Source of the DNA: Spirosoma fluviale
GTDB taxonomy: Bacteria > Bacteroidota > Bacteroidia > Cytophagales > Spirosomataceae
Direction: 5' to 3'
DNA: 57,984 nucleotides
Assembly (NCBI GenBank): GCA_945866095.1
Contig: CAMBGA010000003.1
Location: forward strand, 1-57,984
Of the stretch, positions 1-50,040 are shown piece by piece. The translations under genes and the position numbers were made by a program. The notes beneath the pieces were generated by a model that was not told the origin of the DNA, ran no database searches, and was given only the letters and a program-made list of their open reading frames with translations. Every line of letters begins with the position of its first letter. Position 1 is the first letter of the stretch.

Positions 1-467
1 GTGTTCGTTTTGTACAATTGTATCATCAAGGATGGGATACTCATGGAAATTTGCCAAAAGAAATGGCTATGCAGGCGCAAGATGTGGATCGTTCGTCGGC
101 CGCTTTAATTACAGATTTAAAGCAAAGAGGCTTATTGGATGAGACTTTGGTTATTTGGGGAGGTGAATTTGGCCGAACAAATTATTGCCAAGGAACCTAT
201 ACGGTCGAAAATTATGGTCGAGATCATCATCCTCGTGCCTACAGTATTTTTATGGCTGGTGGAGGCGTAAAGCCGGGAATAGTTTATGGTGAAACGGATG
301 AATTTGGGTATAATGTGGTAAAAGACCCAGTACATATTCATGATTTCCATGCAACGGTTCAGCATTTAATGGGACTTAATCATGAGCAAATGACGTATAA
401 GCATTTGGGCAGAAGGTATCGCTTGACTGATATTGCCGGTAAAGTTCTTCCTGGCTTGTTGGCCTAA
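1..467 (+). CDS. DUF1501 family protein, C-terminal part (truncated by window edge)
   Basis: The reading frame is open to the left edge (frame begins at base 3), so the first TTG codon at 18 is an internal Leu and not a start. The visible part begins inside the conserved block with [10 protein letters not shown], followed by a WGGEFGRT motif and an RDHHP motif, all characteristic of DUF1501 proteins, which share the sulfatase/alkaline phosphatase fold. These proteins are usually Tat-exported and encoded beside DUF1553/DUF1549 cytochrome genes, often in glycan or sulfate-ester clusters; their reaction is not established. The next gene starts 10 bases after its stop and carries a cytochrome c domain, which fits that neighbourhood. 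About 155 residues are visible; the N-terminal two thirds lie outside the window. Confidence 0.9.
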
Positions 468-477
468 TTTTATAACG

Positions 478-2667
478 ATGAATAAATTTTTTAGAATTAG
501 TACAAGCCTCCTTATTTTCTTACAGGGTTTGATTTTAGTGCTTGTTTTATTTACAGATAAAATCCATATTCCTTTGGCTTTTTTGGGTCGTTTGCATCCT
601 TTGGTGTTGCATGTGCCTATTGGCTTTGGAGTCTTTTTAGTGCTAATTTTTGTACTTAAAAAGTGGATTGACGCGCAAGCTTTTCAGGAAATTTTCAGAT
701 TTCTATTGTATTTGACTTCTATTTTTTCTGCCATTACAGCGATTTTCGGCATGTTTTTATCTTCGGAGGGGGGATATGATTTGGAGCAAATCACCTTTCA
801 TCAGTGGGCTGGCTTGGGGGTCAATTGGCTTTATGTCTTACTAATTATTGCTTATGAAAAAGGTTATTTAGAAGGTAGAAATTTATTTTATGGTGTGACG
901 GTTGGTTTAGCTAGTTTTTTCTTGGCCGGTCATGGAGGTGCGAATTTGACTCATGGAGAGGATTATTTATGGGCGAAAGGTGATGGGGAAGCTATTGTAT
1001 TGACCGAAGAATCCGTTGTGTTTGAGGCGGTAATCCAACCTATTTTCAAGCAAAAGTGTGAGGTATGCCATAATGATCAAAAGACCAAAGGTGCCTTGAA
1101 CATGAGTTCGATTGCTAAATTATTAAAAGGTGGAAAAAATGGAGCTATTTGGAAGGCTGGGGATCCATTGAATAGTCATTTTATTCAAAGAGCTAAATTG
1201 CCCATCGATAACAAAAAGCACATGCCGCCGAAAGGCAAGGCGCAGTTGACTCCCGATGAAGTATTATTATTAACTGCTTGGGTCCAAGAGGGCGCTTCGG
1301 TATCCAAAAAGCTAGGGGCTTTTGGGGCAAATTCTAAGCTTATTTCGTTAGCTAAAAAATTGCAAAATACGGCGCAGGCGTTATTGATTCCTGTTAAAGT
1401 GTATGATTTCTCAGCGGCCTCAGAGTCTAATTTAGCTGCGGCCAATACTCCTTTTTGTTCTGTTTATCCTTTGTCGAGCGACGCTCCAGCCTTGCAGGCA
1501 GATTTTTATGTAAGCAAGAAATATGAACGAAAGACGTTGGAAAATTTATCGAAGGTATCTGAGCAGTTAGTCGGCTTGAATCTCTCAAAAATGCCATTCA
1601 AAGATGAAGAAATTAGTTTACTAACTAAGTTCCCTAATTTAGAAAAGTTGATTTTGAATTTTACTGAAATTACCGGAAAGACCTTGGGGGAATTATCGGC
1701 TTGTCAGCATTTAACATCCTTGGCTTTGTCGGGTACTAAAGTAAATAAGGAGGTTTTGGTGAATCTATTGGGAAAAATTCCAAGCTTAAAAGAAGTGTTT
1801 ATTTGGAATACGGGGGTCAGCCTAGACCAAGTCGCTGGCATACAAGCTCAGTTTCCTAAGGTGAAAATCCAAGCAGGTTATGTGCCTAAGGACGAGCAAT
1901 TACAGATTAATCCGCCCATCTTGGTGACCGAGAATTTTATATTAAAGCCCAATGAGGATTTTGTTTTTAAGCATACTTTAAAGGATGTCACTTTTCATTA
2001 TACGTTAAATGATTCAACCCCAGACAGTTTGGGTGCTTTAGTGTCTAGAGGTCCGCTGAAAATAGAAAAATATTCAAAAGTTAAGGTAATGGCAACGAAA
2101 CCAGGTTGGTTAGCCAGCCGTGTCTTGGAATATAAAGTTTATAAATCAGCCTTTATTCCTGATTCGATTTATTTACTTAGTAAGCCAGATCCCAAATATC
2201 CAGCGAAGGGTGGATATAGTTTAAAGGACTTTGTTCAAGGCTTCAGGGAGACGGGTCGTCGCAGTGAATTACCTGATTATACTTGGTTAGGATTTTTTAA
2301 CAACGATTTAGAAGCCTTGTTTGAATTTAAAAAACCTATTTCGCCTAAGGGGATTACTTTTTCATATTTGAGGAAAACGGATTCGGATGTGTTTCCTCCG
2401 GTAAGTATAGAGGTGTTAGCAGGAAATAGCCCGAATGCATTAACCCGCGTGGCCCTGGTGAAACCCGAAAAACCAGAAAAGCGAAATGGCTATACGCAAA
2501 TGGGGCAGGATATACCTCTTAAACCAGGTATTTATAAATATTATAAAATAAAAGCGCTATCACTTAGACGTTTGCCTAAATATCTACTTAAAGATGACAA
2601 GAAGGAAGAAGTCGTTAATAAGGGTAAGCCTGCTTGGCTCCGTGTGGATGAAATATTATTTTATTAA
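478..2667 (+). CDS. DUF2231 membrane / planctomycete-type cytochrome c / LRR-like / CHB_HEX_C-type fusion protein
   Basis: 729 aa from the ATG at 478; the upstream in-frame ATG at 433 lies inside the preceding gene and was not used. Residues 1-160 hold several hydrophobic helices with LHPLVLHVP (39-47) and GHGGANLTHG (151-160), as in DUF2231 membrane proteins. A single-heme CxxCH site is at 194-198 (CEVCH), with MPPKGK and a likely distal Met near 249, the pattern of planctomycete-type cytochrome c domains. Residues about 360-460 look like leucine-rich repeats, and a chitobiase/hexosaminidase C-terminal-like module follows around 500-560. It probably anchors an electron carrier outside the cytoplasmic membrane. 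It is co-directional with the DUF1501 gene (10-base gap) and the M20 gene (24-base gap), so likely one operon. The electron donor is unknown. Confidence 0.85.
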   Translation: MNKFFRISTSLLIFLQGLILVLVLFTDKIHIPLAFLGRLHPLVLHVPIGFGVFLVLIFVLKKWIDAQAFQEIFRFLLYLTSIFSAITAIFGMFLSSEGGYDLEQITFHQWAGLGVNWLYVLLIIAYEKGYLEGRNLFYGVTVGLASFFLAGHGGANLTHGEDYLWAKGDGEAIVLTEESVVFEAVIQPIFKQKCEVCHNDQKTKGALNMSSIAKLLKGGKNGAIWKAGDPLNSHFIQRAKLPIDNKKHMPPKGKAQLTPDEVLLLTAWVQEGASVSKKLGAFGANSKLISLAKKLQNTAQALLIPVKVYDFSAASESNLAAANTPFCSVYPLSSDAPALQADFYVSKKYERKTLENLSKVSEQLVGLNLSKMPFKDEEISLLTKFPNLEKLILNFTEITGKTLGELSACQHLTSLALSGTKVNKEVLVNLLGKIPSLKEVFIWNTGVSLDQVAGIQAQFPKVKIQAGYVPKDEQLQINPPILVTENFILKPNEDFVFKHTLKDVTFHYTLNDSTPDSLGALVSRGPLKIEKYSKVKVMATKPGWLASRVLEYKVYKSAFIPDSIYLLSKPDPKYPAKGGYSLKDFVQGFRETGRRSELPDYTWLGFFNNDLEALFEFKKPISPKGITFSYLRKTDSDVFPPVSIEVLAGNSPNALTRVALVKPEKPEKRNGYTQMGQDIPLKPGIYKYYKIKALSLRRLPKYLLKDDKKEEVVNKGKPAWLRVDEILFY

Positions 2668-44156: not shown

Positions 44157-44330
44157 ATGCCCGCTCGAAAATTGTTGACGATGGCGTTAATATTTGGAAT
44201 GCTGCTCGGCTACGGTTGGCAGTCCGTTGCAACGTCCATTGGTCTTCGAGGTATTTATTTGCTTATCAAAAAAATGGTACATTTTTTCCAATGGGCACTG
44301 GAAAAATTAAAGAAAATAATTGGTTTTTAA
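44157..44330 (+). CDS. Small hydrophobic membrane protein candidate (57 aa)
   Basis: ATG at 44157, TAA at 44328. The product MPARKLLTMALIFGMLLGYG continues WQSVATSIGLRGIYLLIKKM and ends in a basic amphipathic helix (LEKLKKIIGF). It has one clear transmembrane helix (about 6-22) and a second weakly hydrophobic stretch. Its stop codon overlaps that of the convergent FN3 lipoprotein gene (shared TTAA). It lies just after a terminator, so it needs its own promoter, which I do not see. A competing frame at 44153-44368 looks less protein-like. Confidence 0.5.
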   Translation: MPARKLLTMALIFGMLLGYGWQSVATSIGLRGIYLLIKKMVHFFQWALEKLKKIIGF

Positions 44331-45037
44331 TTGACTCTAAAACTATACGGAATCGTATAGGAGCTTAAAATTCCATCGCTCGATTTTACGGACCAATAAT
44401 AGACCGTACCCGGCATAACGTTAACCCAAAGGTTGGAGCTAGTAGTTGCGCTGGGAGCTACGAGTCTGTTCAATACTTTGGTTTGATCAGTATCTATATA
44501 AATTTCATAACTCAAAACTTTGCTGTCCGGATCCGCACCTGACCAAATAAGATTAACTTTTCCAGCGTTGGGTGTAACACTTGCGCCACTGACTGGAGCT
44601 ATCATGACCGCAGGAAAAGGGGCAAAGGTGGAAGCGCCATCGCCGGCTAGGTAAAATTTCCAAACATCACTACTGGCCGTTTCTTTGGATTTGTTGGATT
44701 TGGAAATGACTTGCCAACGGTATGGCGTGCCCCTCAATAGTGTTACGGTAGCTTTGTTATCACTATTGACAGATTTTGTCGTATTAGTTAAGGTATTTAA
44801 ATTGGTGACAACTAAATCGTAAATCTCAGTATCTTTTGCGGCGGCCCATGAAAAAGAAACATCTGAAGTTAAACTTGATACATTAGCACCTTCATAACAA
44901 ACGGTGTTATTGGCCGGCAAAGTAAGTGCGGCGGCCGTTGGCGGGGGAACAACTACCACTGCTGGCGTGATGGTTTCACTACCTTTTGAGCAGGCAAATA
45001 TCAATAAGCTGATCCATAAAATTCCTAGGTATTTCAT
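44327..45037 (-). CDS. Lipoprotein with two fibronectin type III-like domains
   Basis: 236 aa. Lipobox LIFAC gives a lipidated Cys16, and a Val/Pro/Thr-rich linker follows. Two FN3-like beta-sandwiches are visible: SDVSFSWAAAKDTEIYDLVV with TPYRWQVISKSNKSKE (about 45-130) and GKVNLIWSGADPDSKVLSYE with GTVYYWSVKSSDG (about 145-236). It starts inside the end of the DUF1501 gene (ATGA overlap), so it is the last gene of the DUF1800-DUF1501 operon. It is likely a surface or periplasmic partner of the DUF1501 protein. Function unknown. Confidence 0.78.
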   Translation of the reverse strand: MKYLGILWISLLIFACSKGSETITPAVVVVPPPTAAALTLPANNTVCYEGANVSSLTSDVSFSWAAAKDTEIYDLVVTNLNTLTNTTKSVNSDNKATVTLLRGTPYRWQVISKSNKSKETASSDVWKFYLAGDGASTFAPFPAVMIAPVSGASVTPNAGKVNLIWSGADPDSKVLSYEIYIDTDQTKVLNRLVAPSATTSSNLWVNVMPGTVYYWSVKSSDGILSSYTIPYSFRVN

Positions 45038-47133
45038 AGCTTAATTATTTTTAGCGTTTGATCTACGGTTTCCCCTTGGATCCGAATTAAATAAAGACCC
45101 GGAATAAATTCGCTTAAATCCAAGCCGACCAACCTAGACGAAGGGACCGCGTGATTTTGATTGGAAATTGCTAACCCCGCTGCATTGATGATGGAAATAT
45201 CGACCTTTTTGTCTATTCCATGCACATGTAATGAGACAGGTCCGGTGGTTGGGTTTGGAAATGCACTGACCGACTCTGAAACAAAAAACTCCTTGACATA
45301 AATGCCTTGGCAATTTAAATCGGTACTCACTTGTAGTTTCACTAGGCCAGCGGGTAAGGCGGTAGACCAATTAGCCTCCGTTACTTTAAAGAACGCTTCA
45401 TTTATTTGTACGAAATAATTAGTAGCGCCGCCGAGTTGTATACTCATTGATTTATTCCCCACGTCGATGGTCGATTGAACAACCAAAGGTGCCGGTTCAG
45501 TAATTTTGATGTCAAAGGCTTGTTGATAATTCTTGACATTCTCCACCGTAAAGACCAAATTATATACACCCAAGACCAAACCATTCAACAGGCTATTGGC
45601 CACCCCTTTGGGCATATTAATCTGTTTCTCGTATTTGTTAGGTCCTTTGACAGTTAATGAATAAGAATAGTTGGTATTCAAAACCGATACCTTTAAGGAT
45701 CCATTATTCGCACCTACGCACGTGGAAGCCACCACTTCTACCTTGAAATTATTCGATGGTAAAGTGAAAATTTCACATCCATTGACATCTACCAAAGCGC
45801 CTATTGGCGTATCGTTACATTTATCATTTACATCGGGTACGCCATCTTCGTCGGAATCGATGTAGGCCGACTGGATAATGGGAACTTGCTCGAAGTCTTT
45901 AAATAAAATATCTTTCGTAAACGATTTGGTTCCGCCCATCCATTGGTTCATGACTGAGGCATAAACTTGACGGAAATCGTATTGCATATCCATCTCGTAG
46001 GAATAGTTGGTTTTATCTGGGATGATCGGATTCTTGCCAACCACCTTGGGATCAACTTTATTGCCAAACAAAATAACAGGCGAAACGGTACCATGATCTG
46101 TTCCATTGGTTCCATTGGAATGAACCGTTCTCCCAAATTCAGACACACACATACCTAATACACGATCCGATTTCCCCATTTGGTCTAGGCTCTTCATGAA
46201 AGCTGTCACAGCTTCATCTATTTCTTTTAAAATAGTTGCGTGCATTCCAGTCGTTTTATCTCCAGGTTCTACCTGCGCACTATGAGTATCAAAACCGCCA
46301 ATTTGAACTTTATATATTCTAGTTTGTAAACCCCCTGAAATAAGTCGGCTGACGATTTTTAATTGGTCCGCCAAATTACTTCTTGGAAACGCATATTCAG
46401 TTCCTTTTTTAAATTGCTCTTTTAGCACCTTTCCATAGGCATTCGACTGCTTAGCCATGAGCTGCAAATATTTTAATTTCTCGCCGATGGGTGTCGAAGG
46501 GTAATTATTGTCAAATTCATTAATAATCTCGTAAAACGATTCTGGATTTGAGGCCACTACGCTGGTGAAAGATTTTTTTCCAGTAAACATCAACGAAGAA
46601 TTCCAACCAATTTCCATGGACAATGGATGAGGGAATAATTCAGTAGGGTAGGCCTCCGGGAAATTCGGGTGCTTGGCTTCTAAGTAACGGGCGGCCCAAC
46701 CGCTATTTTCGTATTTCAAGGCATCTGAAGCTGAATCCCAAATGTCCATCGACCTAAAATGCGAATAACTTGGTTGAGGATAAGCCACAGCCTGCACAAT
46801 TTTCAAACGGTTTTCCTTGTATAAAGATTGAAATCCTTTTAAAGATGGATGAAGCCCTAATTCGGTACCTTCCAGAGGTAAAATTTTGTTGTCCGGCAAC
46901 ATGACAGTTGATCGAATGCTATTCAATTTAGACAACATATTCAACGGAATCACGGTATTTAAACCATCATTACCGCCACTTAAAACGATGATCACAAGGA
47001 TGTTACCTTCGGCAACCGTTTGAGCTAATTCGGATTGTGTTCCAAAACCTAGGGATTCATAGGGAATAGAAGAAAACAATGCAGGCAAGGCTGCCGCATG
47101 TGACATTTGATGTATAAATTTTCTTCTATCCAT
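45034..47133 (-). CDS. DUF1501 protein with thrombospondin-3-like linker and type IX sorting domain
   Basis: 699 aa from ATG 47133 (the in-frame extension upstream overlaps the DUF1800 gene). The N-terminus MDRRKFIHQMSHAAALPALF is a Tat-type signal. Residues about 35-430 form the DUF1501 domain: LVIIVLSGGNDGLNTVIPL, FDTHSAQVEPGD, CVSEFGRTVHSNGTNGTDHG. A DSDEDGVPDVNDKCNDTP calcium-binding repeat (about 455) follows. The C-terminal 80 residues (FPNPTTGPVSLHV ... GLYLIRI) are a type A sorting domain, which implies export through T9SS. The gene is 1 base after DUF1800, in one operon. Confidence 0.9.
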   Translation of the reverse strand: MDRRKFIHQMSHAAALPALFSSIPYESLGFGTQSELAQTVAEGNILVIIVLSGGNDGLNTVIPLNMLSKLNSIRSTVMLPDNKILPLEGTELGLHPSLKGFQSLYKENRLKIVQAVAYPQPSYSHFRSMDIWDSASDALKYENSGWAARYLEAKHPNFPEAYPTELFPHPLSMEIGWNSSLMFTGKKSFTSVVASNPESFYEIINEFDNNYPSTPIGEKLKYLQLMAKQSNAYGKVLKEQFKKGTEYAFPRSNLADQLKIVSRLISGGLQTRIYKVQIGGFDTHSAQVEPGDKTTGMHATILKEIDEAVTAFMKSLDQMGKSDRVLGMCVSEFGRTVHSNGTNGTDHGTVSPVILFGNKVDPKVVGKNPIIPDKTNYSYEMDMQYDFRQVYASVMNQWMGGTKSFTKDILFKDFEQVPIIQSAYIDSDEDGVPDVNDKCNDTPIGALVDVNGCEIFTLPSNNFKVEVVASTCVGANNGSLKVSVLNTNYSYSLTVKGPNKYEKQINMPKGVANSLLNGLVLGVYNLVFTVENVKNYQQAFDIKITEPAPLVVQSTIDVGNKSMSIQLGGATNYFVQINEAFFKVTEANWSTALPAGLVKLQVSTDLNCQGIYVKEFFVSESVSAFPNPTTGPVSLHVHGIDKKVDISIINAAGLAISNQNHAVPSSRLVGLDLSEFIPGLYLIRIQGETVDQTLKIIKL

Positions 47134-47134
47134 A

Positions 47135-48883
47135 TTAAAATAATTGGATTTCTCCCATTTGGAATAAGGCGCCAAACAAATTTTCTAATCGGTTACTTAA
47201 AATTGATCGAGTCTCTTCAGTCTGTTTACTCATATGCGACTGATATAATTGCGTATAATAAGAAGGGGCATTTCCTCCCAAAACACTTGCTTTAATGCGC
47301 GCTTTGGCCTTATCAGAGATAGGAGCACTCATGATCTTTTCTACCGTTTCGTCGATGACCAGGTCGAGGTTTTCAGGAGATTTCAAACTGCTGACAAACT
47401 TAATTTTGTCTATTTGATTGTGTACATTTCCTTTAACTTCACCGGATCCAACCCACGCGCCCCATTTGGCAATACTATTTGCAGAATTGGATCTTTTAGC
47501 TATAGTGTCTGAATTGATCCAAAATAAATCAAAGACAGGTTCTTGGTAATAGGCAGGCCAACCGGATACGCTAGGAGGATCTGTATAGTTCAAACCTATG
47601 TTGCCCATTTCCCATTGCAAATTTTTGAATTTATAAAAATTACTTGTCAGTGGATCTGAGAATCGCTTAGGTATATCACCTCCTGTTGTAGTATTGGATA
47701 AATTCATGTCAAATTCCTTGTAAAATCCGAATATAAATTCCAAAGGTGATTTAATCATGGAATTATAAAACGAGTTATCATAAAAATGAGCACTTCCTAA
47801 AAGTGCACGAAGCGGAACTTTTAGTTCGTAATTATTTTTACGAAGTAGGTCAGCCATAGGCACTATGACATTTTTTTCTACGGTATCGTTAATGATTGGG
47901 TAACAGAAAAATTGGTATAGCCTCCTAGACAAGTACAATGCGCATTCGTTCGTGCTAAAGAGCATATCTATCGCTTCATCTAATTCTTTTTTACCATCCT
48001 GGCCATTTCGGCCTTTTATTAATCGATTGCCATAAAAGGCAGAGAATTGCTTATCTGAGGTATCGTGATTCCACGCATTGAATATGTTGGTGATAGGACC
48101 AGTCATTTTGTTTTTACTATCATTGTTGAATTGCCAGCCCACTAATAATCGAGCCATTTCACCAACATCTTGCTCTGTAAATTGAGATTTAGGTCCTTTT
48201 CCTACGGTAAATAATTCTTGTAATTCGCGGGCATAATTTTCATCGGGCTTATTCTTTTGACTGTGCTGCAGGTTGAGGTAGTCCAACATTAATGGGTCCA
48301 ATGTAATTTTGTAAATCGTGGTTTTGTAAGACTCAAAGGAAGTATTAAAGAGAGTTATGTAGTGTTGATACAACATTTTGACACTTCCTTTTCCAGCTGC
48401 TAATAGGTTATGCAGGAAGAATACCATGCGCCAATGTACTGAAGTACTTTGTTGGACCATGTTTCTAAATAGCCAAGCGTCATGTGAATTATGTCTTGGT
48501 CCTGGTGATCCATTCGGTTCGGGAGCAAATACATACTCTTTCCCCGGTTCTATATATACGTGACCTTGTTTTTCGGTTTCCTCCTTCGTGATTTCATAAT
48601 CATAGTCATTGACCGGAACGCTCGGTTGTTTTTCAGGTGTAAAGATTAAGTCTAGGGATTTTTGTAAAGAAAGGTTGTTGAGGTCCAATAAATGCCTACT
48701 TCCATAACCTGTTAAAACACGATTTAACAGATGTTTCTTTTGCGCGGTTCCCCAAGTTCCAGTGTATGCTTCAAGGCCAGTATTGACTACAGTTCTGGAC
48801 GCTCGAGCCTTTTCGATTTTGGAGAAATCGACGTTTTCTTTGCGAAACTGGGCTACTAAGTCTATATTTTTTGTATTTTGCAT
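47135..48883 (-). CDS. DUF1800 family protein
   Basis: 582 aa with no signal peptide; cytoplasmic or membrane-associated by default. Sequence features of DUF1800: HLLNRVLTGYGSRHLLDLNN, SVHWRMVFFLHNLLA (the WRMxFxxHN core), ARELQELFTVGKGP (the ExxELxTLG core), GWQFNNDSKNK and KSPLEFIFGFYKEFD. DUF1800 is nearly always encoded next to a DUF1501 gene; here the DUF1501 gene follows after 1 base. The pair is widespread in Bacteroidota, Planctomycetes and Proteobacteria, and the joint reaction is unknown. A TATATTTG box lies 17 bases before the ATG. Confidence 0.92.
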   Translation of the reverse strand: MQNTKNIDLVAQFRKENVDFSKIEKARASRTVVNTGLEAYTGTWGTAQKKHLLNRVLTGYGSRHLLDLNNLSLQKSLDLIFTPEKQPSVPVNDYDYEITKEETEKQGHVYIEPGKEYVFAPEPNGSPGPRHNSHDAWLFRNMVQQSTSVHWRMVFFLHNLLAAGKGSVKMLYQHYITLFNTSFESYKTTIYKITLDPLMLDYLNLQHSQKNKPDENYARELQELFTVGKGPKSQFTEQDVGEMARLLVGWQFNNDSKNKMTGPITNIFNAWNHDTSDKQFSAFYGNRLIKGRNGQDGKKELDEAIDMLFSTNECALYLSRRLYQFFCYPIINDTVEKNVIVPMADLLRKNNYELKVPLRALLGSAHFYDNSFYNSMIKSPLEFIFGFYKEFDMNLSNTTTGGDIPKRFSDPLTSNFYKFKNLQWEMGNIGLNYTDPPSVSGWPAYYQEPVFDLFWINSDTIAKRSNSANSIAKWGAWVGSGEVKGNVHNQIDKIKFVSSLKSPENLDLVIDETVEKIMSAPISDKAKARIKASVLGGNAPSYYTQLYQSHMSKQTEETRSILSNRLENLFGALFQMGEIQLF

Positions 48884-48899
48884 CAGAAATATCAGTTTT

Positions 48900-48907
48900 C
48901 AAATATA
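48900..48907 (-). promoter_or_regulatory. -7 box TATATTTG for the DUF1800/DUF1501 operon
   Basis: Exact TAnnTTTG match on the minus strand in the 78-base divergent gap to the Rieske gene, 16 bases before the DUF1800 ATG. Confidence 0.5.
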
Positions 48908-48961
48908 AAAGATTTATTTTAAAAAAGTGTTATAACTGATTTAACGGTCATTTTTTAATCC

Positions 48962-49468
48962 ATGAAAAGAAGAGAATTTGCTAGAAAGGCATGCCCAGCT
49001 TTGGTACTTTCCATTGTCGGTGTTGCTCTTTTAGAATCGTGTGATAACGCAAAAGAAGATTCGGCGGTGATCGTTCCCCAGGAGGAAAAAGATTATTTAG
49101 ACCGGATGAAGACGATTGGTACTACGGGATTTTTGCAAGTACAAAACAAGGTATATTTCAACCTGAAGCATGCGAGTTATTCTAAGCTCTTGACGTCCGT
49201 TAATTTTGTGAATGACCTTGACAATGGAGTGTTGTTGCTAAGGCAGAATGCCACAAGCTTGTTGGCCTTCGACAATTGCTGTCCTCATTTAGGAAGTAAA
49301 AATCAGTGGACCTTTCAGAGCAATAAATTTAAGTGCGCTAATCATGGCAATAGCTATGGAATTGAGTCGGTCCAAACAGCAAATTGTAGTTCAAATAGCC
49401 AATTTGGCAACTTGCGCTCATTTAAAACCTTGCTCTATAAGGATTTGCTGACGGTGGATTTTAGTTGA
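48962..49468 (+). CDS. Rieske-type [2Fe-2S] lipoprotein
   Basis: 168 aa. The N-terminus MKRREFARKACPALVLSIVG resembles a Tat signal and ends at LLESC, giving a lipidated Cys27. The Rieske cluster is complete in minimal form: Cys107-Pro-His109 in CCPHLGS and Cys125-x2-His128 in CANHGNS. No other Rieske subunit domain or partner enzyme domain is present, so it is probably a small electron carrier. It is divergent from the DUF1800/DUF1501/FN3 operon (78-base gap), which suggests that it may serve as a redox partner of that system. Electron donor and acceptor unknown. Confidence 0.85.
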   Translation: MKRREFARKACPALVLSIVGVALLESCDNAKEDSAVIVPQEEKDYLDRMKTIGTTGFLQVQNKVYFNLKHASYSKLLTSVNFVNDLDNGVLLLRQNATSLLAFDNCCPHLGSKNQWTFQSNKFKCANHGNSYGIESVQTANCSSNSQFGNLRSFKTLLYKDLLTVDFS

Positions 49469-49480
49469 CGCACGTGAAAA

Positions 49481-49804
49481 TTAATCCACAAAGGCCATTC
49501 TAATCGTTTCTTTTGTTTTTTGAATTTCTGTAACACTTAGCGAACCTAATATTTTACTGATTCGGTTCCGATCTATCGTTCTGATTTGATCGATAGCTAT
49601 CCAGCCAACGGTATTTTGAAGATTTGTTTTTATCCGAGTGGGATAATTTTTTGAATTAGTCGTTAAAGGGGCAATGACAATAGTTTGTAGATATTTATTC
49701 ATCTCGTTTGGCGAAATGATGACGCAAGGTCTAGTTTTTTTCATTTCACTCCCTTGAGTTGGATCGAGATTGACTAAAACGAATTGATATTGCTCTAAGT
49801 CCAT
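49481..49804 (-). CDS. mazF: MazF-type endoribonuclease toxin
   Basis: 107 aa, cytoplasmic. QYQFVLVNLDPTQGSEMKKTR and PCVIISPNEMN show the MazF/PemK barrel, with the conserved basic residues of the active surface, plus IAPLTTNSKNYPTRI and AIDQIRTIDR. Cleavage specificity cannot be predicted. It overlaps its antitoxin gene by 10 bases. It is more classically MazF-like than the toxin at 35704-36042, because its antitoxin is a MazE-type AbrB-fold protein. Confidence 0.93.
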   Translation of the reverse strand: MDLEQYQFVLVNLDPTQGSEMKKTRPCVIISPNEMNKYLQTIVIAPLTTNSKNYPTRIKTNLQNTVGWIAIDQIRTIDRNRISKILGSLSVTEIQKTKETIRMAFVD

Positions 49805-50040
49805 TCCTCAAATGTTTCATCTTCAAAAACATCTGTGATAAGCGCTTGATCTTCACCTGACTCATGCATCTTTTCAAATGCTTTTTCCCAGTTTTTTCGA
49901 GGTTCAATGACCGGTTTAATGATAATGTATTCTTTCTCTAGCAAAAGTTCGACCGAATCGTTGATGTTGTATTTTTCTAAAATAGTTTTACTCAGACGTA
50001 TGCCTTTTGAATTGCCGATAGGAATGATTGAAACTTGCAT
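49795..50040 (-). CDS. mazE: MazE-type antitoxin (AbrB-like swapped-hairpin)
   Basis: 81 aa. MQVSIIPIGNSKGIRLSKTI with the following LEKYNINDSVELLLEKEYIIIKP is the SpoVT/AbrB DNA-binding hairpin of MazE, with the IGNSKGIR core. The acidic C-terminal tail (EDQALITDVFEDETFEEWT) is the toxin-binding part. A TAATTTTG -7 box and the palindrome TTGTAATTACAA lie just upstream (50052-50079), which fits autoregulation. First gene of the pair. Confidence 0.92.
   Translation of the reverse strand: MQVSIIPIGNSKGIRLSKTILEKYNINDSVELLLEKEYIIIKPVIEPRKNWEKAFEKMHESGEDQALITDVFEDETFEEWT

What the first reader, a model, noticed from the sequence alone, without database searches (positions are those of the whole stretch)
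44327..49468. DUF1800/DUF1501/FN3-lipoprotein operon facing a Rieske lipoprotein
The DUF1800-DUF1501 pair is widespread but its reaction is unknown. Here the DUF1501 protein carries a calcium-binding linker and a T9SS sorting domain, the operon adds an FN3 lipoprotein, and the divergent neighbour is a minimal Rieske electron carrier. This suggests a secreted redox or ester-cleaving system that includes an FeS partner.
Basis: inference. Interest (0 to 1): 0.55.

Follow-up and report, generated by a model that had tools for sequence, protein, structure and literature searches.

The report
Surface enzyme cassette with Rieske partner
A three-gene operon of unknown function in some Bacteroidota repeatedly travels with a small iron-sulfur electron carrier, which gives a concrete and testable hint that this widespread protein pair may do redox chemistry outside the cell.

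Summary
In detail: DUF1800 (48883-47135), DUF1501 (47133-45034) and an FN3-like lipoprotein (45037-44327) form a tight minus-strand operon, 78 bp from a divergent Rieske lipoprotein gene (48962-49468), in a MAG of the Aquirufa genus.

Of 44 named loci with this Rieske family, 30 have DUF1800 and/or DUF1501 beside it, in Cytophagales and Flavobacteriales, in four gene orders; no fifth gene recurs as widely. Partnered Rieskes form one clade. Of 40 other DUF1800 loci, 0 have a Rieske. The clade's DUF1800 lost a histidine kept in 44 of 44 others.

Against an obligate partnership: five Aquirufa loci of the clade have no adjacent Rieske, though their genomes hold one elsewhere.

DUF1501 has an alkaline-phosphatase-superfamily fold; DUF1800 matches no solved fold. 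DUF1501 bears a Tat-like start and a T9SS tail; DUF1800 has no signal, so it may be co-exported. Electron transfer is inferred, not shown; the glycan context is not conserved. New variant of a known kind.

The parts
47135..48883 (-). DUF1800 protein, 582 aa, no N-terminal signal peptide seen
   Evidence: Pfam 231.6 bits; highest 12-residue mean hydropathy in the first 45 aa is 0.15-0.57 in the 14 genus-level homologues; AF2 model pLDDT 83.7, pTM 0.85
45034..47133 (-). DUF1501 protein, 699 aa from ATG 47133; Tat-like M-D-R-R-K-F start
   Evidence: Pfam 67.1 bits; M-x-R-R-x-[FIL] in 27 of 28 linked homologues (the exception L088 was read from an over-long ORF start, the same locus starts M-N-R-R-N-F as L054)
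45805..45858 (-). acidic TSP3-like linker (DSDEDGVPDVNDKC), putative Ca2+ site
   Evidence: TSP_3 10.5 bits, E=0.5 in the window protein; D426/D428/D430 invariant in A6
45043..45261 (-). T9SS type A C-terminal sorting domain
   Evidence: Por_Secre_tail 30.6 bits and TIGR04183 28.1 bits, both above cut-off; 21 of 22 members of A6 match, the 22nd being the truncated window row
44327..45037 (-). lipoprotein (L-I-F-A-C lipobox), FN3-like
   Evidence: fn3 20.6 bits, below cut-off 25; lipobox; homologue in the neighbourhood in 12 of 16 lineages
48884..48961 (.). 78-bp divergent intergenic region between DUF1800 and Rieske
   Evidence: sequence
48962..49468 (+). Rieske [2Fe-2S] lipoprotein, 168 aa, Tat-like start M-K-R-R-E-F, lipobox L-L-E-S-C
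   Evidence: Pfam 25.9 bits
49280..49345 (+). Rieske cluster segment C107-P-H109 ... C125-A-N-H128
   Evidence: C-x-H ... C-x-x-H present at all 44 loci and in the window (each locus had been found by a pattern that holds one half of the motif)

Best explanation
It is a conserved four-gene cell-surface module. SHOWN: DUF1800, DUF1501, an FN3-like lipoprotein and a Rieske lipoprotein stay together through rearrangement and diverge together; the partnered DUF1800s form one branch (with a Rieske-less side group, type C); DUF1501 is predicted to have an alkaline-phosphatase-superfamily fold. INFERRED: DUF1501 folds in the cytoplasm around signal-less DUF1800 and the pair leaves through Tat (hitchhiking); the T9SS tail then brings DUF1501, with or without DUF1800, to the cell surface; the Rieske protein takes up its 2Fe-2S cluster in the cytoplasm, is exported (probably by Tat), lipidated, and passes single electrons to or from the DUF1800/DUF1501 complex; the FN3-like lipoprotein anchors or organises the complex. 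The complex would therefore do a metal-dependent reaction that needs or yields electrons, not a plain hydrolysis.
For: Recurrence: of the 25 best Rieske matches in relatives after the window's own (of 48), 18 have DUF1800 beside them, 2 lie at contig ends, 5 are distant Rieskes without it; 30 of 44 named loci have DUF1800 and/or DUF1501 beside the Rieske. Four gene orders among the 30: 23 divergent from DUF1800, 4 convergent at the FN3 end, 2 co-directional after FN3, 1 rearranged in Robertkochia. Only these four families recur in more than 4 of 16 lineages. Partnered Rieskes fall in a starred clade (99/97). Mantel r 0.903 and 0.939 of Rieske with DUF1800 and DUF1501 over 26 loci, 0 of 2000 permutations as high. 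Control: 0 of 40 other DUF1800 stretches have a Rieske-motif ORF. TatC in 38 of 38 genus genomes; SprA in the own genome. At six other DUF1501 genes of the same genome the neighbour is a PSCyt1-PSCyt2-PSD1-type protein with CXXCH motifs, an independent redox association of DUF1501.
Against: Type C operons of the same DUF1800 clade (5 Aquirufa loci; 3 with ample flanks) have DUF1800 and DUF1501 (FN3 in 4; the fifth contig ends early) but no Rieske beside them, so the Rieske is not strictly required in cis. 40 unpartnered DUF1800 stretches show no Rieske and only 1 has any CXXCH ORF, so redox partners are not general to DUF1800/DUF1501 in these relatives. The candidate metal ligands of DUF1501 are those expected of a hydrolase and do not differ between partnered and unpartnered forms. 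The Mantel correlation also follows from shared descent. No interaction, electron transfer or export was measured. Strict R-R-x-F is present in only 22 of 45 Rieskes.
Confidence: 0.45

Rival explanations
1. DUF1501 is an ordinary secreted phospho- or sulfo-hydrolase/transferase of the alkaline phosphatase superfamily with DUF1800 as chaperone or substrate-binding subunit; the Rieske protein is a co-regulated surface protein with another task (for example redox sensing or general surface electron traffic) and gives the complex no electrons.
For: AlkP-superfamily fold: the 50 listed rows are all superfamily members by my recalled classification, best Z 11.0 with rmsd 4.2 over 220 residues to ENPP6; candidate ligands D56, S124, D282, H284, D346, H347 kept in linked and unlinked DUF1501 alike; type C operons run without an adjacent Rieske; Rieskes of the sister groups sit with other genes (DUF3570/ApbE/thioredoxin, YceI).
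Against: The Rieske-DUF1800-DUF1501 link survives four gene orders and the partners' distances correlate; no other neighbour is kept as widely.
Confidence: 0.3
2. The four genes travel as one horizontally moving cassette and the Rieske is a passenger: the link reflects co-transfer, not function.
For: In the DUF1800 tree Flavobacteriaceae and Cytophagales members interleave (Robertkochia next to Aquirufa/Sandaracinomonas, type C next to Flavobacteriaceae), and three paralogous cassettes occur in one genus.
Against: A passenger would be lost or broken often; an intact cluster motif is present at all 44 loci (found in part by patterns from that motif), and gene order is reshuffled while membership is kept.
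Confidence: 0.12
3. DUF1800 is not exported: it is a cytoplasmic chaperone or cofactor-insertion factor that prepares DUF1501 (and perhaps the Rieske protein) for Tat.
For: No hydrophobic N-terminus in 14 of 14 genus-level DUF1800s; only 1 of 44 unlinked ones exceeds a mean hydropathy of 2.0; DUF1501 lies beside DUF1800 in 37 of 40 other stretches.
Against: A few unlinked DUF1800s seem to carry an export signal (L138 Sec-like; L175 M-D-R-R-A-F, Tat-like), which would mean that the mature protein works outside.
Confidence: 0.13

Closest known systems
DUF1800-DUF1501 operons (PF08811/PF07394)
   Same: Same two families, adjacent, DUF1501 with twin-arginine start; the predicted operon and the Tat motif of a chitin-synthase-linked DUF1501 are already in print (PMC5122149, passages read).
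   Different: This subfamily adds an FN3-like lipoprotein and a Rieske lipoprotein, its DUF1501 is about 700 aa long with a T9SS tail (10 others tested: 397-529 aa, tail in 5 of 10), and its DUF1800 lacks the histidine at window position 160 (H in 44 of 44 unlinked, 0 of 27 linked).
PSCyt1-PSCyt2(DUF1549)-PSD1(DUF1553) plus DUF1501 modules
   Same: A second large protein pairs with DUF1501 and an electron carrier (cytochrome c) is present; six such pairs are in this genome. Weak co-linear profile similarity of DUF1800 to PSCyt2/PSD1 (score 38.9 against at most 24.8 in 40 column shuffles, HHalign probability only 18%; N-terminal part 25.3 against at most 20.6 in 60, probability 12%).
   Different: Here the carrier is a separate Rieske lipoprotein, not a fused haem domain; common ancestry of DUF1800 and PSCyt2-PSD1 is not shown.
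Rieske proteins of bc1/b6f complexes and Rieske ferredoxins
   Same: C-x-H ... C-x-x-H cluster motif; the best solved relatives are b6f Rieske chains (E 0.0018 at best).
   Different: Lipid anchor instead of a membrane helix; the two cysteines of the canonical disulfide are absent and two other cysteines are conserved instead.
Alkaline phosphatase superfamily (NPP, sulfatases, phosphoethanolamine transferases)
   Same: Predicted fold of the DUF1501 domain.
   Different: No sequence match to solved structures at E<=1; reaction unknown.

Membership tests
Rieske [2Fe-2S] proteins | C-x-H ... C-x-x-H cluster ligands and family profile | tested here: met
   PF00355 25.9 bits over cut-off 20.3; motif at all 44 loci and in the window (loci were found by patterns holding one half of it)
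bc1/b6f-type Rieske subunit | disulfide pair C-x-H-x-G-C / C-x-C-H (recalled) | tested here: not met
   the residue after the box-1 glycine is S/T/A/I and the third residue of box 2 is N/S/T in 45 of 45
DUF1800 | Pfam profile over cut-off | tested here: met
   231.6 bits, profile 1-397 of 419
DUF1501 | Pfam profile over cut-off | tested here: met
   67.1 bits, but only profile 243-341 of 390; 22 of 22 members of A6 match
Alkaline phosphatase superfamily | fold | tested here: met
   VIA-align Z 11.0, rmsd 4.2, 220 residues to ENPP6; the 50 listed rows are superfamily members by recalled classification; the model is weak, pLDDT 53.9, pTM 0.64
Alkaline phosphatase superfamily | metal ligands and nucleophile in the active site | tested here: inconclusive
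   D56, S124, D282, H284, D346, H347 conserved in 28 of 28 linked and 37-38 of 38 unlinked; their assignment as ligands is recalled motif order, no coordinates were available
T9SS type A substrates | C-terminal sorting domain and a T9SS in the genome | tested here: met
   SprA_N 457 bits in the own genome; secretion itself not tested
Tat substrates (DUF1501) | twin-arginine motif, TatC in the genome | tested here: met
   27 of 28, TatC 38 of 38 genus genomes; export itself not tested
Tat substrates (Rieske lipoprotein) | R-R-x-F motif | tested here: inconclusive
   strict R-R-x-F in 22 of 45, [KRN]-R-x-x-F in 42 of 45; the window protein has M-K-R-R-E-F
Surface-exposed Bacteroidota lipoproteins (LES) | K-(D/E)2 or Q-A-(D/E)2 just after the lipid cysteine (PMC5080379, passages) | tested here: inconclusive
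   window C-D-N-A-K-E-D; C-S-K-E-E-E in L078/L079, C-Q-K-D-D in the L053 FN3-like protein; many others lack it, and no lipobox was called by my script in 12 of 45 Rieskes
FN3 domain | Pfam profile over cut-off | tested here: not met
   20.6 of 25 bits; four relatives give 18.2 and 22.8 bits or no fn3 match

The most novel reading that the evidence does not exclude
DUF1800/DUF1501 is a surface oxidoreductase of a new architecture: a mostly helical DUF1800 fold without solved relatives joined to an AlkP-fold metalloprotein, fed with single electrons by an extracellular Rieske lipoprotein here and by fused cytochrome c in the PSCyt-PSD1/DUF1501 modules, and exported as a Tat-then-T9SS hitchhiking complex.
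Probability: 0.18. Interest if true: 0.85.

Novelty: new variant of a known kind. Interest (0 to 1): 0.55.

Why it matters
DUF1800 and DUF1501 have no assigned reaction in Pfam. The held library has 4 and 10 papers that name them, 12 in all; the passages I saw in 7 of these 12 give no function, the other 5 I saw only as listings. A small, soluble, colour- and EPR-visible Rieske partner that recurs in two orders turns 'unknown function' into a direct biochemical test. If the pair is a redox enzyme, the PSCyt/PSD1-DUF1501 modules would come into view as the same kind of machine. The Tat-like signal plus T9SS tail on one protein, with a signal-less partner, is also a testable export route.

Tried and rejected
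Glycan context: sulfatase, GH16, GH30 and cupin neighbours are shared by the nearest relatives (L041, L042, L046, partly L043 and L044; a different sulfatase, 27-30% identical, lies near the operon in L048) and form no neighbour family shared by 3 or more of 16 lineages (Aquirufa counted as one lineage); rejected as a clue to function.

A redox partner for every DUF1800: rejected, 0 of 40 Rieske, 1 of 40 with a CXXCH ORF. N214-to-D as a mark of the subfamily: rejected, many Rieske-less DUF1800s also read P-D-E-N. The H160 change stands against the 44 compared; in 22 further Rieske-less loci the stretch printed keeps the histidine where it could be read (not readable in L273 and L277). It is shared by the Rieske-less type C, so it marks the clade and not the Rieske.

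Homology of DUF1800 with PSCyt2-PSD1: above all shuffles made but HHalign probability 2-21%; kept as a lead only. DUF1800 fold: no Foldseek match at E<=0.001 and no VIA row at Z 5 or more, best Z 4.4; absence proves nothing. Distances in the models (for a substitute disulfide C106/C142 of the Rieske) could not be measured, since no coordinates are given and the Rieske was not folded.

Dropped from counts: L084, first labelled as having DUF1501, has a reprolysin protease with a T9SS tail instead; L098 has only the FN3-like gene before its contig ends; both are not in the 30. In one search a contig-edge fragment of G003 (267 bits) was left out of the 21. The 23 weakest Rieske matches were not examined for neighbours, except the one of the own genome on C73. 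The patterns contain C-C-P-H and C-[AE]-N-H, so the conservation of the extra Cys before the first ligand and of the ligands is partly built in; the Cys 13-15 residues after the last ligand is not.

Paper searches: DUF1800 and DUF1501, T9SS with Tat (72), lipoprotein export signal (73), Tat hitchhiker/Rieske (74), DUF1549/DUF1553 (81), Aquirufa with Rieske (82, no paper), Rieske lipoprotein in Bacteroidetes (83): nothing I saw describes this association; most subscription papers are not held.
Full report
WHAT IS THERE. The minus strand holds DUF1800 (48883-47135, 582 aa), DUF1501 (ATG 47133 to 45034, 699 aa) and a 236-aa lipoprotein (45037-44327) with spacings of 1 nt and a 4-nt overlap; 78 bp upstream of DUF1800 a 168-aa Rieske lipoprotein gene runs the other way (48962-49468). 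Profile matches: DUF1800 231.6 bits, DUF1501 67.1 bits, T9SS tail 30.6 bits, Rieske 25.9 bits, all above their cut-offs; fn3 20.6 bits is below its cut-off of 25, and the TSP3-like linker is only 10.5 bits. The genome is a 2.48-Mb MAG in 186 contigs, 81% complete, with 2 DUF1800 and 9 DUF1501 matches. It is of the Aquirufa genus: G005, marked 'same genus', carries its Rieske on a contig of 156,667 bases, the length of the Aquirufa rosea contig of L076; other members are deposited as Spirosoma fluviale or Cytophagaceae MAGs.

DOES THE RIESKE RECUR? A protein search found a match at 1e-5 in 39 of 149 genomes (own included), 49 matches in all, 28 of them distant (24-38% identity). I fetched the stretches of the 25 best matches after the window's own: 18 have DUF1800 next to the Rieske, 2 have the Rieske at a contig end, and 5 distant ones (24-33%, other families of the order) have no partner. 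A scan of 84,980 species genomes with the 14-row alignment A2 gave 44 loci; the titles that name a group name Bacteroidota of Cytophagales and Flavobacteriales. Annotating them with HMMs built from the genus set: 30 of 44 have DUF1800 and/or DUF1501 beside the Rieske, 1 has only the FN3-like gene before the contig ends (L098), 1 has the FN3-like gene beside a reprolysin protease (L084), 4 are at contig ends without partner, 8 are unpartnered. Gene order among the 30: 23 divergent from DUF1800, 4 convergent at the FN3 end (L090, L094, L097, L105), 2 co-directional downstream of FN3 (L086, L101), 1 rearranged (Robertkochia marina, L083). Clustering the neighbours of 23 representative loci (16 lineages, Aquirufa counted once), the Rieske, DUF1501, DUF1800 and FN3-like families occur in 16, 14, 12 and 12 lineages; the next family occurs in 4 (the 14 includes L084, which is wrong).

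PHYLOGENY. In a tree of 49 Rieskes the partnered ones fall in a starred clade (99/97) of 36 rows: 33 labelled linked (window, L084 and L098 included), 2 contig-edge rows and 1 unpartnered row (L085, close to L084); the other 7 unpartnered and 2 edge rows lie outside. Over 26 loci with all three genes, pairwise distances of Rieske correlate with DUF1800 (r 0.903) and DUF1501 (0.939), 0 of 2000 permutations as high; shared descent contributes to this. Two genomes carry two cassettes each, with Rieske 35-37%, DUF1800 43-44% and DUF1501 46-47% identical between them, so the set was duplicated or acquired as a set.

CONTROLS AND RESULTS AGAINST. I fetched 40 other DUF1800 stretches of the order, about 6 kb on each side where the contig allows, from the capped list: 20 among the best profile matches, 18 that match the profile in the same partial way as ours, one further (G044) and the second copy of the own genome. 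0 of 40 have a Rieske-motif ORF of 70-400 aa, 0 of 40 the FN3-like family, 37 of 40 have DUF1501, 1 of 40 has a CXXCH ORF. Searching back with the DUF1800 alignment in 59 relatives, 37 of them of the genus: of 21 Aquirufa loci of types A and B, 17 have the Rieske adjacent (window included; one Rieske cut by the contig end, G014), 3 break off at a contig end right upstream of DUF1800 (G029 and G032, where the Rieske lies at the end of another contig, and G004, where no close Rieske was found), and 1 is the second copy of a tandem duplication (G009). Against the simple view, 5 further Aquirufa loci (type C, 663-681 bits) have no Rieske; 3 have ample flanks, 2 (L253, L255) are on short contigs. 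In the DUF1800 tree type C is nested inside the partnered clade (SH-aLRT 100 for the clade of 32; quick method), so the Rieske was most simply lost there; all 5 genomes hold another Rieske of the family, so it might serve in trans. In a sample of 395 genomes of the phylum only the own genome has a strong Rieske match (285.6 bits, next 59.2): the module is rare.

WHAT SETS THE SUBFAMILY APART. Comparing 27 partnered with 44 unpartnered DUF1800s, position 160 is H in 44 of 44 and L/I in 27 of 27, R/K179 (43 of 44) becomes F/Y, W157 (43 of 44) becomes L/Y, K321 becomes R; E215, N216, R219, E220, E223, D239, H51 and R55 are shared. N214-to-D, seen in the same comparison, is not specific. The type C proteins read F-[LF]-H-T-L at this place, so they also lack the histidine. 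In DUF1501 R336 becomes T while D56, S124, D282, H284, D346 and H347 stay. All 44 Rieske loci and the window keep the cluster motif but lack both cysteines of the canonical disulfide; instead they have a Cys directly before the first ligand and one 13-15 residues after the last (45 of 45 each), a plausible substitute disulfide that I could not measure. The loci were found by patterns that contain part of these residues; the last Cys is not among them.

STRUCTURE. The DUF1501 domain model is weak (pLDDT 53.9, pTM 0.64), yet the 50 VIA rows shown are, as I know these proteins, all of the alkaline phosphatase superfamily, best Z 11.0, rmsd 4.2, 220 residues (ENPP6). The DUF1800 model is good (pLDDT 83.7, pTM 0.85), mostly helical, with no Foldseek match at E<=0.001 and best VIA Z 4.4. 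Which residues bind metal in DUF1501 is my reading of the motif order, recalled, not computed.

EXPORT. DUF1501 starts M-x-R-R-x-[FIL] in 27 of 28 linked proteins and R-R-x-[FIL] occurs in 35 of 38 others; TatC is in 38 of 38 genus genomes. The T9SS tail is on 21 of 22 members of A6, the exception being the window row that I had cut, against 5 of 10 tested others, and SprA is in the genome. DUF1800 shows no hydrophobic N-terminus (0.15-0.57 against 1.09-1.53 for DUF1501 and 2.17-2.97 for the FN3-like protein, genus sets of 14, 14 and 12). Export of a partner without signal through Tat is known for heterodimers (PMC10924467, start of abstract in the listing). The Tat motif of a DUF1501 is already in print (PMC5122149, passages). 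Some Rieske and FN3-like N-termini resemble the surface-lipoprotein export signal K-(D/E)2 (PMC5080379, passages; our sequences), others do not.

A SECOND REDOX LINK OF DUF1501. Of the 9 DUF1501 matches in this genome, 2 are beside DUF1800, 6 are beside a PSCyt1-PSCyt2-PSD1-type protein with CXXCH motifs (PSD1 matched in all 6; full Pfam scan of 4 of the 6), and 1 (window 3-467) is cut by the contig start. He and colleagues noted for Verrucomicrobia that PSCyt genes neighbour unknown families and often sulfatases, and suggested functions that mirror those of glycoside hydrolases (PMC5615132, passages). DUF1800 and PSCyt2-PSD1 show weak co-linear profile similarity that does not prove homology.

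JUDGEMENT. That these four genes form a functional module is well supported (about 0.9). That the Rieske exchanges electrons with the DUF1800/DUF1501 complex is the simplest reading of a conserved electron carrier beside a conserved enzyme-like pair, but untested (about 0.45). The case is a new variant of a known pair, worth attention because it makes an old unknown testable.

Noticed in passing
window 49481-50040: PemK/MazF-family toxin gene (95.3 bits) with a small upstream gene without Pfam match lies between Rieske and the next hydrolase; PemK is at this place in L044 and L046 but absent from L041, L042 and L043, so it looks like a recent insertion or loss.
   Followed up: partly
L184 2780-9696 (own genome, C73): A distant Rieske lipoprotein (35% identity) lies about 5 kb from a PSCyt-PSD1/DUF1501 pair, in a separate gene group on the other strand; coordinates show a Rieske 4-5 kb from a PSD1 gene also in G004, G009, G010 and G017.
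   Followed up: partly
L045 899-8998 (also L069): Tandem duplication of the DUF1800-DUF1501-FN3 cassette with a single Rieske (second DUF1501 99% identical to the window protein over 371 aa).
   Followed up: no
L092, L106, L109: Sister Rieskes are followed by an unknown ~205-aa protein (no Pfam match in L092 and L106) and a YceI-like protein (YceI confirmed for L106), a possible separate electron-transfer set.
   Followed up: partly
L096, L107 (L100 and L102 also have a second Rieske): Another Rieske group sits with DUF3570, ApbE flavinyltransferase, thioredoxin and a second Rieske lipoprotein (Pfam done for L096 only).
   Followed up: partly
L084 and L085: Rieske lipoproteins of 325 aa with InlB-like repeats inserted (Pfam done for L085); the one in L084 lies near the FN3-like gene and a T9SS-tailed reprolysin metalloprotease instead of DUF1501.
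   Followed up: partly
window 3-2667: C-terminal part of a typical DUF1501 at the contig start, followed by a protein with DUF2231-like and PSCyt1 matches.
   Followed up: no
L094 6845-10534: DUF1501 and DUF1800 of this Flavobacteriaceae MAG are broken into several frames, either sequencing errors or decay.
   Followed up: no
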